Below are positions 4,327 to 57,047 of a stretch of 64,000 bases of DNA, piece by piece. The translations under genes and the position numbers were made by a program. Source of the stretch: an uncultured Schlesneria sp. (GTDB taxonomy: Bacteria > Planctomycetota > Planctomycetia > Planctomycetales > Planctomycetaceae). Location of the stretch: NCBI GenBank assembly GCA_903858935.1, contig CAIOKO010000191.1:62001-126000 (forward strand), in the 5' to 3' direction. The notes beneath the pieces were generated by a model. That model was not told the DNA's origin. It ran no database searches and was given only the letters and a program-made list of their open reading frames with translations. Numbering within the stretch: position 1 is the stretch's first letter; each line of letters begins with the position of its first letter.

Positions 4327-5943
4327 ATGCCAGCGAGTGTTCGACGTGCTTTGATCAGTCTCAGCGACAAACAAGGTTTGATTCCATTTGCTCAAGGACT
4401 TGTCCGTCACGGTTTTGAATTGTTATCGACGGGAGGGACTCGGAAATCGCTGGAAGCGGCAGGAATACCGGTCATCGACGTCGCTCAATACACAGGTTTT
4501 CCCGAGATGATGGATGGGCGGGTCAAGACACTGCATCCCAAGGTGCACGGCGGATTGCTCGGTCGACCTGACCTGGCTGCCGATGCCAAGTCGATGAGCG
4601 AGCATGGCATCACTCCGTTTGAATTGGTCATCGTCAATCTTTATCCGTTTGTTGAAACGATTTCGAAGCCAGGTGTTTCGCCAGCGGAAGCAATCGAACA
4701 GATTGATATTGGTGGCCCCAGTATGCTTCGTTCGGCAGCCAAAAACCATAAATACGTCGGTGTTGTTACCAGTCCGGCACAATACGACAGGGTGTTAAGC
4801 GAACTTGCCGCTGGTCACCTCAGTCACGAGTTTCGCGTGGAACTCGCCGCCGCTGCATTTGAAATGACCGCTCGCTACGACAGAGCAATTTCTGATTACA
4901 TGCAAACACTGGTAACCTCAGCAGATCCGTCCCACAAATCCCAATTGTCACATTCTTCTGCCGAAAGTAATGAAGCATTCCCGCCAAAACTGACGTTGTC
5001 ATTCGAACGACGTTCATCGTTGCGTTACGGTGAAAACCCACACCAACGAGCTGCGTTCTATGTGGAATCATACCCGTTGCCATCAACGCTGGCGGCGGCT
5101 GAAATCCTGCACGGCAAGGAATTGTCCTACAACAATCTGCTGGATCTGGATGCGGCGATGCAGATCGTGCGTGAATTCCACCAACCTGCGGCAGTTGTCA
5201 TCAAGCACAACAATCCTTGTGGATGTGCCATGGCGGATCGTCTTTCAGATGCCTATCTCATGGCAGATGCTGGCGATCCTGTCAGTGCGTTCGGTTCGAT
5301 TCTGGGGTTCAATCGCGAAGTTGACGACGCGACTGCGGATCATTTGTGTGATCCTGGACATTTTATCGAATCAATTATCGCGCCTTCCTACACTCCGTCG
5401 GCATTTCAGAAATTAACGACTTTGCCAAAATGGAAAGCAAACGTTCGGCTGCTGAAGTGTCCAGGAATGCTCGACGCCCGGCCAATCAGCCAGGAGTTCC
5501 GCCGTGTGACAGGTGGCCTGCTTGTACAGGATCGGGACGAGGCCACCGATCAGAATTCGGAATGGAAAATCGTGACATCACGTCAACCGACGGATGTAGA
5601 ACGAGCCGATCTCGAATTTGCGTGGCTCGTTTGCAAGCACGTGAAATCGAATGCGATTCTGTTCGCCAAAGGAGGACAGGTCGTCGGAGTCGGCGCGGGT
5701 CAGATGAGTCGTCTCGATTCGTCATTCATCGCCGCATTCAAATCGAACGACCGTGCAAAGGGCGGCGTTTGCGCTTCGGACGCGTTCTTTCCGTTCCGCG
5801 ACGGGATTGACCAGATTCAAAAGGCGGGGATTACTGCCGTGATTCAGCCAGGAGGATCAAAGCGAGACGATGAAGTGATCGCGGCCTGTAACGAATACGG
5901 AATCGCAATGATTTTCACGGGTCAACGACATTTCCGGCACTGA
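4327..5943 (+). CDS. purH: Bifunctional AICAR formyltransferase / IMP cyclohydrolase
   Basis: Catalyses the last two steps of purine synthesis: formylation of AICAR by 10-formyl-THF, then ring closure to IMP in the cytoplasm. The N-terminal MGS-like cyclohydrolase domain (LLSTGGTRKSL, DGRVKTLHPKVHGG) occupies roughly residues 1-150. The transformylase domain carries RYGENPHQ, KELSYNNLLDLDAAM, the catalytic Lys-His pair in IKHNNPCG, and SDAFFPFRDG near the end. The length of 538 residues is typical. It is preceded by 278 bp with no recognisable purine riboswitch. It converges with the next gene with only 8 bp between stops, and no terminator hairpin is visible there. Confidence 0.97.
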   Translation: MPASVRRALISLSDKQGLIPFAQGLVRHGFELLSTGGTRKSLEAAGIPVIDVAQYTGFPEMMDGRVKTLHPKVHGGLLGRPDLAADAKSMSEHGITPFELVIVNLYPFVETISKPGVSPAEAIEQIDIGGPSMLRSAAKNHKYVGVVTSPAQYDRVLSELAAGHLSHEFRVELAAAAFEMTARYDRAISDYMQTLVTSADPSHKSQLSHSSAESNEAFPPKLTLSFERRSSLRYGENPHQRAAFYVESYPLPSTLAAAEILHGKELSYNNLLDLDAAMQIVREFHQPAAVVIKHNNPCGCAMADRLSDAYLMADAGDPVSAFGSILGFNREVDDATADHLCDPGHFIESIIAPSYTPSAFQKLTTLPKWKANVRLLKCPGMLDARPISQEFRRVTGGLLVQDRDEATDQNSEWKIVTSRQPTDVERADLEFAWLVCKHVKSNAILFAKGGQVVGVGAGQMSRLDSSFIAAFKSNDRAKGGVCASDAFFPFRDGIDQIQKAGITAVIQPGGSKRDDEVIAACNEYGIAMIFTGQRHFRH

Positions 5944-54868: not shown

Positions 54869-55348
54869 TTATTTCTTCTTCTTTTTCGATTTTGGCTTAA
54901 CTTCTTCCTCTTCTTCATCGAGGTCGAAGTCTTCAAACGCATCGTCGCTGTCTTGCGCCACGATTTCTTCGCTTGAGTCAGCAAGGTCAAAGTCCGAGGC
55001 CGCTTCGACGGCATCATCATCATCATCATCATCATCATCGAGAGCCTCGATCGTCTCACTCGGTTCATCAGAGACTTCAACGTCGTCATCGACCTCTTCG
55101 ATATCGTCACCAGTTGATTTTTTCGCATCTGCCTTTGGTGCGGCTGGTTTGCGGCTACCGCCAAACATCACGCCGAACGGTATTAGCAATGCGGTCGCAG
55201 CAGCGAGCAAAGTCAATCCCATTACGACGTATGCGATGGTTGAAAGGCTTTCGGAGTAGGAAAGCATCGCCATGACCAATACGTAGATAAGATACGCAGC
55301 GGGAATCGCAGCGACCAATGACGTCAACATTCGTTGCAATTTTGTCAC
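54869..55348 (-). CDS. Small membrane protein with long acidic tail
   Basis: A 159-residue protein with two transmembrane helices (LVAAIPAAYLIYVLVMAML and IAYVVMGLTLLAAATALLIPFGVMF) and a tail of about 85 residues dominated by Asp, Glu and Ser. The tail includes nine consecutive Asp encoded by a GAT microsatellite and a C-terminal lysine block. The tail is probably disordered and cytoplasmic, though the orientation is not certain. No family is recognised. It converges with the ABC-2 permease gene, 7 bp apart. Confidence 0.75.
   Translation of the reverse strand: MTKLQRMLTSLVAAIPAAYLIYVLVMAMLSYSESLSTIAYVVMGLTLLAAATALLIPFGVMFGGSRKPAAPKADAKKSTGDDIEEVDDDVEVSDEPSETIEALDDDDDDDDDAVEAASDFDLADSSEEIVAQDSDDAFEDFDLDEEEEEVKPKSKKKKK
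55012..55038. repeat. Trinucleotide microsatellite (CAT)9
   Basis: Nine uninterrupted CAT units (GAT on the coding strand) encode nine Asp in the acidic tail of the small membrane protein. Slippage here changes the tail by whole residues without shifting the frame. Confidence 0.9.
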
Positions 55349-55710
55349 GGCAGGGATTCCAAAAGATTAAAACGGACTTCTCAGGAAGAAGTGACTCTAT
55401 CAGTGTCGTCAAAGTTCTCTGGATACATCAAGCAACAGCTCCTGGTGAGCCGCTTGCGGTGGCCTTGGAGCAACTTGATTTATCGTAATGACCTCTACCA
55501 ATCGGTCACAAGATCGGCTTGAGGGAATCCGCGACCCCACTCGAATTCCTTTTCCGCGATTTCTCACTGTCAAGGTTCGCCAGTTGTAACGATTTTATCG
55601 ATTAGTATGGCCCCATATCGATGCCGACAGGAGTTTTTCGATCGGAGATGGACCATTAGACGTTGGGAAGACTGAGGTTTAACATTGACTTAATACCCGT
55701 GAATGCGGGG
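55349..55710. other. Intergenic region containing one copy of the 84-bp-type repeat
   Basis: 362 bp between divergently ending units. It holds copy C of the repeat (55402-55488), described separately. The remaining 220 bp show nothing recognisable. Confidence 0.5.
55402..55488 (+). repeat. Copy C of the VVKV-type repeat
   Basis: Read in frame from 55402 it gives SVVKVLWIHQATAPGEPLAV then ALEQLDLS and a TAA stop at 55486. It matches the two units upstream of the acyltransferase at 16 or more of about 25 residues, with VVKV, APGEPLA and ALE..L in register. No start codon with a ribosome binding site precedes it, so it is treated as a repeat or a gene remnant, not a gene. Confidence 0.7.
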
Positions 55711-56847
55711 TTAAGCGGCATTTCGCTCGACTTCGATGGAACTGGAATTTGTCTCGAGTGCGATTGAGGCAGGGGGCGGTTGCTGATCAAAGCCGGTTTT
55801 ATGAACTTTCATCGATACCGCGGGGCTTTCAATCAACCACCATGACAGGATAGCGCAAACAACCGTGACCAGGGTGACCAGACCTAGATGCCATGAGTCG
55901 TGCTTCCAGCCAAGTTGTACTAGTGCGTTAATTGCCAGCCCATGATAGAGGTAGACTCCGTACGAAATATCATTGCCTCGCAAAACGAATTCACTTAGCG
56001 AACGCCATGAGAAGGCAAAAGACAGTACGGTCATCGCCAGTAAAAGCCGCGCCAACAACACGGAAGTTGGCGATGATGAGAGCGTTGCTGGCCCCCAGGG
56101 ATTGAGCAGCACCATGCATGCGGAAAATCCGGCAAACCAAAATGCGATACGATTTTCGAGTAATGGCCGAAGGCTTTCAAAATTTCGCTGCAACATGATC
56201 CCTAGCAGAAACATGTAAAGATGCGGTATCGGTGTTACCATCTGCAGCTTGGTCCAGTTACTATCGGGGTCGGCGTACTGCGACAACTGGAACCAGTATG
56301 CAAACGAAGCCAACGCTAATGCTGCCAGACCAAAGTCGGCCCAGCGTCGACTCACTCGATTCACAAATCCCACGTAGAGAATTGGAAGTGACACATAGAA
56401 ACCTAATTCAACGGGGATCGTCCAAAGGCTTCCGTTTAAAACACCGAGACCGAATCCTCGCATGAACGCGGGATTGTAGACCTGCACGAATGTGGACTGT
56501 GCGATGATCCAAAGCCCAAAAGACAGACTGGTCGCGATGGAGGGGGTGATCGTACCAAACGAGGTTGCAACCAGTACTCCGACGGCCAATTGGACCCACA
56601 ATGCCGGATAAATCCTCAATACGCGTTTCGTGGCGTAGTCTCGCCAGTTGTCCGATCGTTCCCACGACCGCGAGATCAAAAATCCGCTGATTGTGAAAAA
56701 AATCGGAACTCCTGGAAACCAGTGAATGAAATTGGAGAGCGTCGGATCACCGATTCCCGTCGTAATCCCCAAGTGCCAGCAGGTATGGCAATAAACCACT
56801 TGTAATGCGGCCAGAAGTCGAATGAGATCGAAGTTGTTTGGACGCAT
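55711..56847 (-). CDS. Acyltransferase 3 family membrane protein (OafA/YrhL-like)
   Basis: A 378-residue protein with about ten transmembrane helices. The N-terminus FDLIRLLAALQVVYCHTCWH carries the conserved Arg and His of the Acyl_transf_3 family, which O-acetylates surface sugars from cytoplasmic acetyl-CoA. GVPIFFTISGFLISRSW and SYGVYLYHGLAINALV are further hallmarks. The charged C-terminal tail is not conserved. It opens the visible polysaccharide cluster on the minus strand. Its promoter region is occupied by the 84-bp tandem repeat, whose first bases overlap its own 5' end. Confidence 0.92.
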   Translation of the reverse strand: MRPNNFDLIRLLAALQVVYCHTCWHLGITTGIGDPTLSNFIHWFPGVPIFFTISGFLISRSWERSDNWRDYATKRVLRIYPALWVQLAVGVLVATSFGTITPSIATSLSFGLWIIAQSTFVQVYNPAFMRGFGLGVLNGSLWTIPVELGFYVSLPILYVGFVNRVSRRWADFGLAALALASFAYWFQLSQYADPDSNWTKLQMVTPIPHLYMFLLGIMLQRNFESLRPLLENRIAFWFAGFSACMVLLNPWGPATLSSSPTSVLLARLLLAMTVLSFAFSWRSLSEFVLRGNDISYGVYLYHGLAINALVQLGWKHDSWHLGLVTLVTVVCAILSWWLIESPAVSMKVHKTGFDQQPPPASIALETNSSSIEVERNAA

Positions 56848-56861
56848 TCTTACTTCTTTCT

Positions 56862-57047
56862 CTCGAGGAACTTGACATTTTAGCTGTCGTAAAAGTTCCT
56901 TGGGTTCATGGAGCGGAAGCTCCCGGTAAACCGCTTGCAGCGGCTCTCGAGGAGCTTGAAATTTTATGTGTTGTAAAAGTTCCTCGAGTTCATGGAGCCG
57001 GAGTTCCTGGCGAACCGCCTGCTGCGGCTGGCCAGGAACTTATCTAA
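56862..57047 (+). repeat. 84-bp tandem repeat, units A and B
   Basis: Unit A is 56862-56945 and unit B 56946-57029, each 84 bp (28 codons), followed by the start of a third unit to the TAA at 57045-57047. In one frame they read LEELDILAVVKVPWVHGAEA and LEELEILCVVKVPRVHGAGV, then PGKPLAAA and PGEPPAAA. Many differences are at third codon positions, as expected for protein-level selection, yet no ATG or ribosome binding site opens the frame (only a TTG at 56838 that overlaps the acyltransferase start). It may be a gene fragment or a mobile repeat. Confidence 0.8.

What the first reader, a model, noticed from the sequence alone, without database searches (positions are those of the whole stretch)
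55402..57047. 84-bp coding-like repeat flanks the acyltransferase gene on both sides
Units A and B (56862-57029) are tandem 84-bp copies upstream of the acyltransferase, and unit C (55402-55488) lies downstream of it. In one frame all three give VVKV...W/R-x-H...A/VPGxPxA-type peptides and the series end at TAA. Unit differences cluster at third codon positions. Yet no convincing start exists. This may be a short mobile cassette, a decayed small-protein gene, or recombination ends that brought in the acyltransferase.
Basis: partly seen in the sequence, partly recalled or inferred. Interest (0 to 1): 0.65.

Follow-up and report, generated by a model that had tools for sequence, protein, structure and literature searches.

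The report
Mobile 84-bp hairpin element invading proteins
The repeat is one of about 80 copies of a small hairpin-rich jumping DNA element in a planctomycete bacterium; it lands mostly between genes, but also inside some proteins, where it adds 28 amino acids without breaking the reading frame.

Summary
The repeats are real, but they are neither a gene nor cassette ends. They belong to a dispersed 84-bp family: 79 copies in the window's genome at E<1e-3, and 72, 77 and 35 in three congeners; of the other 11 congeners, 10 have none and one has a single weak hit. All 35 named stretches found are uncultured Schlesneria (Planctomycetes). The unit folds into three hairpins with compensatory changes. 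Coding fails: over 34 gapless copies, differences fall 104/132/106 on codon positions 1/2/3, and in-frame stops match random mutation. Element-free orthologous sites show insertion. The target, about CTYWYNA, resembles the element's own 5' end, which would explain the head-to-tail tandems. Some copies sit in frame inside conserved genes (PilT-type ATPase, DnaE-type polymerase, beta-RFAP-synthase-like protein), adding 28 residues absent from orthologs. It behaves like Rickettsia palindromic elements, in a planctomycete, with its own target preference. What moves it is unknown: no Y1 transposase lies beside a copy; IS110 is not detected in two carriers. The acyltransferase is independent of it.

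The parts
56860..56943 (+). Unit A, a full 84-bp element; begins 12 bp upstream of the start codon of the acyltransferase (minus strand)
56944..57027 (+). Unit B, a second full element directly head to tail with A; G004 has two units at this site, G001 and G005 one
57028..57044 (+). Remnant of the target site (CTGGCCAGGAACTTATC); relatives read CTCTTGAGGAACTTATC (G004) and CTCCCGAGGAACTGATC (G001), close to the element's own 5' end
55379..55462 (+). Copy C, an old diverged element; absent at the orthologous site in G001, G004 and G005
55463..55485 (+). Sequence after copy C resembling the start of another unit (target-like)
   Evidence: read by eye
56838..57047 (+). 69-codon open frame through A and B; judged spurious
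55711..56847 (-). Acyltransferase (PF01757) between the copies; not part of the element

Best explanation
The three units are copies of a non-autonomous palindromic mobile DNA element of 84 bp. Shown: about 80 dispersed copies with the same borders; three hairpins; insertion into sites that are element-free in relatives, with a net gain of 84 bp at the two cleanest; insertion directly 5' of a motif like CTYWYNA that matches the element's own first bases (CTCTTGAGGAAC). Shown: it is not itself a gene, but it is 28 codons long and its consensus is stop-free in one frame, so copies landing in sense on Leu-Glu/Asp codons insert 28 residues in frame; a second frame is used near some N-termini. Inferred: tandems such as A-B arise because a resident copy starts with the target motif. 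Inferred: an unidentified enzyme acting in trans recognises the folded element and the CTYGA motif. Inferred: copies between genes mostly drift, while in-gene copies come under mild protein-level constraint.
For: Copy number and distribution. Hairpins with compensatory changes: 29 double-change cells in 57 copies against a mean of 6.3 in shuffles, 0 of 500 as high. Coding tests negative. Element-free orthologs for 12 of 20 sites examined plus window site C. Target motif: C, T and A at downstream positions 1, 2 and 7 in 57, 57 and 59 of 69 copies, and present in element-free orthologs. In-frame insertions in Pfam/NCBIfam-recognised genes.
Against: No mobilising enzyme found. Sliding the helix partners by a few columns still gives up to 19 double-change cells against 29, and 15 of the 29 sit at one pair. 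Many young copies lie inside a second dispersed repeat whose sequence supplies part of the downstream motif, so the 69 flanks are not independent. 3 of the 4 off-consensus empty sequences lack CT by one base or more, so the motif is a preference, not a rule. All assemblies but G002 are fragmented.
Confidence: 0.82

Rival explanations
1. The family spreads without a dedicated enzyme: a replicating strand switches at a CTYGA microhomology to an element copy, copies 84 bp to the next CTYGA, and returns to its own template.
For: Target resembles the element's 5' end; copies are followed by the motif; unit number changes between relatives at site A-B; no transposase found.
Against: Restriction to 4 of 15 congeners and the same 84-bp borders nearly everywhere fit an active, specific mobiliser better.
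Confidence: 0.2
2. A REP-type element moved by a REP-associated Y1 tyrosine transposase (RAYT).
For: Hairpin element in high copy; 13 Y1 genes in the genome.
Against: No element beside any of the 13 Y1 loci (best nhmmer E 0.33); Y1 genes are as common in non-carriers; direct tandems rather than inverted pairs.
Confidence: 0.1
3. A regulatory or terminator-like structured RNA whose copies are kept for function.
For: Hairpins with compensatory changes; A-B lie just upstream of the acyltransferase start.
Against: Few copies between convergent genes (4 of 53 with both neighbours called); no Rfam match; old copies lose their fold; G-U and A-C mismatches are balanced once pairs that are variable or G-U in the consensus are left out.
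Confidence: 0.05
4. A translated 28-residue repeat gene or its relic.
For: Open frame through A-B, also open in three relatives; 8 of 15 A/B differences at third positions.
Against: No third-position excess and no stop depletion over 34 copies; no conserved start.
Confidence: 0.02
5. The copies are the ends of a cassette that carried in the acyltransferase.
For: Copies on both sides; the gene is variable among congeners.
Against: Same gene beside the same DegT neighbour in element-free G002, G003 and G014; copy C missing in relatives that have the gene.
Confidence: 0.01

Closest known systems
Rickettsia palindromic elements (RPE)
   Same: Small palindromic repeats, between genes and fused in frame inside unrelated protein genes (passages of PMC10969869 and PMC2229807).
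   Different: 84 bp rather than about 150; a planctomycete host; the target resembles the element's own 5' end; exact head-to-tail tandems. No sequence comparison with RPEs was made.
Other small mobile sequences with fused frames (ERIC/RU-1, YPAL/RU-2, NEMIS)
   Same: Non-autonomous, under 200 bp, fused in frame to other genes, including a predicted signal peptide partly formed by an element (passages of PMC2229807).
   Different: Those are mostly described with terminal inverted repeats and target duplications; neither is seen here (ends read by eye).
REP elements with RAYT transposases
   Same: High-copy hairpin repeats, some inside genes, with REP types reported in Planctomycetes (passages of PMC3733652).
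   Different: Longer unit with three hairpins, no GTAG or CGTC at the hairpin borders of the consensus (by eye), no transposase beside a copy.

Membership tests
RPE-like protein-invading element (by behaviour) | Dispersed in many copies, mostly intergenic | tested here: met
   79 copies at E<1e-3; 66 of 77 intergenic by a codon-score heuristic
RPE-like protein-invading element (by behaviour) | In-frame insertion inside unrelated conserved protein genes, absent from orthologs | tested here: met
   PilT-type ATPase, DnaE-type polymerase, beta-RFAP-synthase-like protein
Rickettsia palindromic elements (by descent) | Sequence homology to an RPE family | not tested
   no RPE sequence was compared
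MITE | Terminal inverted repeats | tested here: not met
   consensus ends CTCTTGAGG and GCGGCGG are not complementary (by eye); hairpins are internal
MITE | Target-site duplication | tested here: not met
   left and right ends agree little more than shuffled pairs (4 bases: 13 of 69 against 9.3; 137 of 2000 shuffles as high)
REP/RAYT | GTAG or CGTC tag at one end of the palindrome | tested here: not met
   consensus, by eye
REP/RAYT | Y1 transposase flanked by the element | tested here: not met
   0 of 13 Y1 loci in G000
IS110-derived (bridge RNA) element | IS110 recombinase in every carrier | tested here: not met
   PF01548: G000 2, G001 1, G004 0, G005 0 (draft assemblies)
Known structured RNA | Match to an Rfam family | tested here: not met
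   0 at gathering scores in 8 sources; with a lax threshold only off-element hits in the one locus tried, L026
Protein-coding gene | Synonymous excess, stop depletion, conserved start | tested here: not met

The most novel reading that the evidence does not exclude
A mobile element that spreads by recognising its own 5' end (CTTGAG-like sites), and whose 28-codon stop-free unit makes sense-strand landings on Leu-Glu/Asp codons tolerable, so that it acts as a travelling protein-insertion module, possibly by template switching with no transposase at all.
Probability: 0.15. Interest if true: 0.8.

Novelty: new variant of a known kind. Interest (0 to 1): 0.57.

Why it matters
In-frame invasion of proteins by small palindromic elements is best known from Rickettsia, where a review calls its frequency unusual and a similar route elsewhere 'conceivable' (PMC10969869 passages). 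Here a planctomycete with an 8-Mb genome shows the same outcome, in a PilT-type and a DnaE-type gene among others, with filled and element-free sites in close relatives and a readable target motif. That makes it possible to test how such elements move and whether the inserted peptides stay neutral or become part of the protein.

Tried and rejected
Coding test over the family: negative. Rfam: nothing on the element. Viral contigs: 0 exact matches of one 24-letter pattern. Y1/RAYT link: negative. IS110: not in all carriers. Three G005 places with partial BLAST matches were examined as possible longer, autonomous versions; two were ordinary full copies and one was truncated. G-U against A-C cells as a sign of an RNA strand: 143 against 38 overall, but 42 against 36 (my subtraction of pairs 4-46, 5-45, 6-44 and 78-82), so no strand is favoured. 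Structure prediction of the PilT-type protein with the insert: mean pLDDT 47.3, a poor model; stretches of the N-terminal domain score 70-87 and residues 62-88, most of the insert, are below 50; only suggestive. My gene caller, a codon-score heuristic, counted the spurious 69-codon frame as a gene for A and B. N-terminal cases (L021, L017, L038, L138, L162, L166, L168) have undecided true starts.

Empty-site work: one search sliced the relatives wrongly and was redone. Of 20 sites, 12 gave an aligned element-free relative: L033, L014_2065, L036, L048, L035, L017, L039, L044, L043, L024, L046, and L023_4779 (only in G002 and G014); L017, L043 and L023_4779 align poorly. Of the other 8, L021 is rearranged, L014_7529 and L023_2111 align on one side only, and five (L019_1432, L031, L045, L038, L037) gave no alignment; by the coordinates, L031, L045 and L038 look filled in G001 and G004. 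For the in-gene copies in the PSD1-type protein, the PAS kinase, the glycosyltransferase and the membrane protein no clean element-free ortholog was obtained. In one search the L039 pair contains a 1-bp deletion and was scored across it; the intergenic groups were named by me.

Full report
WHAT IS THERE. Two adjoining units lie at 56860-56943 and 56944-57027 and a diverged third at 55379-55462. The 61-residue double unit has 63 tblastn matches at E<=10 in the window's own genome (7.93 Mb, 280 contigs). A DNA profile found 57 copies in the first loci fetched, nearly all with the same 84-bp borders, and 77 after more loci were fetched. A covariance model gave 84 matches at E<=1, of which 79 are below 1e-3; E-values from that model are rough.

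DISTRIBUTION. Of 59 genomes (the own one included), 11 have a match at E<=0.01: G000 77, G001 72, G004 77 and G005 35, and seven genomes one weak match each (E 2.4e-4 to 0.008). In the genus 4 of 15 are carriers, G008 has one weak match and 10 have none. An exact pattern scan of a collection of 84,980 species returned 35 stretches, all from three uncultured Schlesneria assemblies; contig numbers and lengths identify them with G004, G001 and G005 (for example). The scan may leave out the window's own genome. Viral contigs gave 0. That Schlesneria is free-living is recalled, not from a call.

NOT A GENE. In 34 gapless full-length copies (of 57; the rest have indels or were trimmed by the local alignment), differences from the consensus number 104, 132 and 106 at codon positions 1, 2 and 3. 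A versus B alone shows 8 of 15 at position 3. At the orthologous A-B sites the frame is open in G001, G004 and G005 too, but the TTG start is not conserved.

STRUCTURE. A and B fold at -32.3 and -30.6 kcal/mol (z -3.25 and -2.94); copy C and two old in-gene copies (L043, L033) do not beat shuffles. On 31 chosen copies (of 57) 93.4% of cells pair. On all 57 (53 distinct) 89.8% pair, with 29 double-change cells against 6.3 in shuffles and 0 of 500 shuffles as high; 15 of the 29 are at one pair, and slid control structures reach 19. Which strand matters is undecided.

IT MOVES. Site C is element-free in G001, G004 and G005; since C is the most diverged window copy, it is either an old insertion in the G000 line or was lost in the others. 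For 12 of 20 other copies at least one relative has an aligned element-free site; the two cleanest, L033 and L014_2065, show a net gain of 84 bp. Downstream of 69 copies not followed by another unit, position 1 is C in 57, position 2 is T in 57 and position 7 is A in 59; the first 12 bases match the element start at 5.8 positions on average against 3.0 at random places. These flanks are not independent, because many young copies lie in a second dispersed repeat. The motif pre-exists in element-free relatives: CTCTTGAGGAAT and CTCTTGAGGATT (L014_2065), CTCTCGTGAAGA (L036), CTCTTGATGAAC (L033); 10 of 14 sequences from 8 sites, with junctions set by me, begin with CT. Left and right ends do not covary clearly. 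A resident copy begins with the same motif, which would explain head-to-tail tandems (inference); site A-B has two units in G000 and G004 and one in G001 and G005.

INSIDE PROTEINS. By a codon-score heuristic 66 of 77 copies are intergenic, 3 overlap gene ends, 1 is antisense inside a gene and 7 are sense inside a gene, of which two are A and B in the spurious frame; 70% of the examined DNA was called coding. The clearest cases: in G004 a PilT/PilU-type ATPase (TIGR01420, 317.6 bits, just under its 319.1 cut-off) carries 28 extra residues after LRDLPEP, absent from orthologs in G000, G001, G005 and G002. In G005 a DnaE-type polymerase carries the unit at DWDCTLE, absent in G000, G001, G004, G014 and G002, in a stretch whose length also varies between them; each of the six genomes has a second DnaE-like frame at about 30% identity, so this may be the non-replicative paralogue (inference). 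A beta-RFAP-synthase-like protein (128.7 bits, below the 328 cut-off) has it in G000 and G001 and not in G004 and G005. Others, without a clean element-free ortholog: a PSD1-type cytochrome protein, a PAS histidine kinase, a group 1 glycosyltransferase, and a membrane protein shared by G000, G001 and G004; a PAP2 protein has it near the N-terminus in G000, G001 and G004 and not in G005. In a second frame the unit lies just after MRGL in what looks like a signal peptide (by eye), open in G000, G001, G004 and G005. The in-frame target codons in the PilT-type and DnaE-type genes of relatives read Leu-Asp and Leu-Glu.

CONSTRAINT AFTER INSERTION. Orthologous filled in-gene copies give pN/pS 0.41 (1 pair), 0.59 (3 pairs) and 0.72 (6 pairs, second frame); a fourth group has 0 synonymous and 4 nonsynonymous changes. 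Six groups treated as intergenic give 0.90, 0.60, 1.17, 1.27, 2.05 and 3.17. The direction fits drift between genes and mild constraint inside them, but the numbers are small and overlap.

THE ACYLTRANSFERASE. It lies between the DegT and the 159-residue gene in G002 and G003, and beside the DegT gene in G014 (63-71% identity), all without the element, and is missing from that place in G006 and G007. It is variable, but not because of the element.

WHAT MOVES IT. Y1 transposase genes occur in all 15 congeners searched, and none of the 13 in this genome has a copy beside it in the 1.6-3.3 kb fetched around each. IS110 recombinases were found in G000 and G001 but not in G004 and G005. I favour an unidentified enzyme in trans; template switching at CTYGA microhomology is the main rival.

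COMPARED WITH WHAT IS KNOWN. I saw passages of three papers. PMC10969869 describes RPEs of about 150 bp fused in frame in Rickettsia and calls a similar route elsewhere 'conceivable'. PMC2229807 covers RPE and other small mobile sequences, including a signal peptide partly formed by an element. PMC3733652 covers REPs, including in-gene copies and REP types in Planctomycetes. Searches for Planctomycetes or Schlesneria with palindromic, MITE or REP terms listed no paper whose title or abstract start describes this element; only open-licence papers are held and most hits were seen as listings only.

Noticed in passing
L026:1805-1925 and 4721-4850; L060:2615-2748: Other dispersed palindromes built from short repeated words (GTTGACAAAGTTGGCAAAG..., TGATCGAACTGCGTCGAACTT...) in the same intergenic islands as 84-bp copies.
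   Followed up: no
L026:2307-2345 and 2371-2419; similar after copies in L018, L013 and L028: A second dispersed repeat (CTCTCGACTCACTCATAACGACTTTCTGCCGCTTCGGC...) directly follows many young copies and supplies a CTCTCGA-like target.
   Followed up: partly
L060:3525-3621: Inverted repeat with arms TTAACCACGGATAGCACTGATGGACATGGATAA, 82% complementary.
   Followed up: no
window 54869-55348 (-): A 159-residue predicted membrane protein ends in a long acidic tail with a run of nine Asp and a final run of Lys; the gene is kept in relatives with or without the acyltransferase.
   Followed up: no
L091 (G007) and L092 (G006): The acyltransferase is missing between the DegT and 159-residue genes in these congeners, so it is a variable gene at a fixed place.
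   Followed up: partly
L166:403-4896 (G005): A well-preserved copy (93% peptide identity in the second frame) lies near the N-terminal end of a 1498-codon frame with PVC-type heme-binding domains, a candidate recent N-terminal extension.
   Followed up: partly
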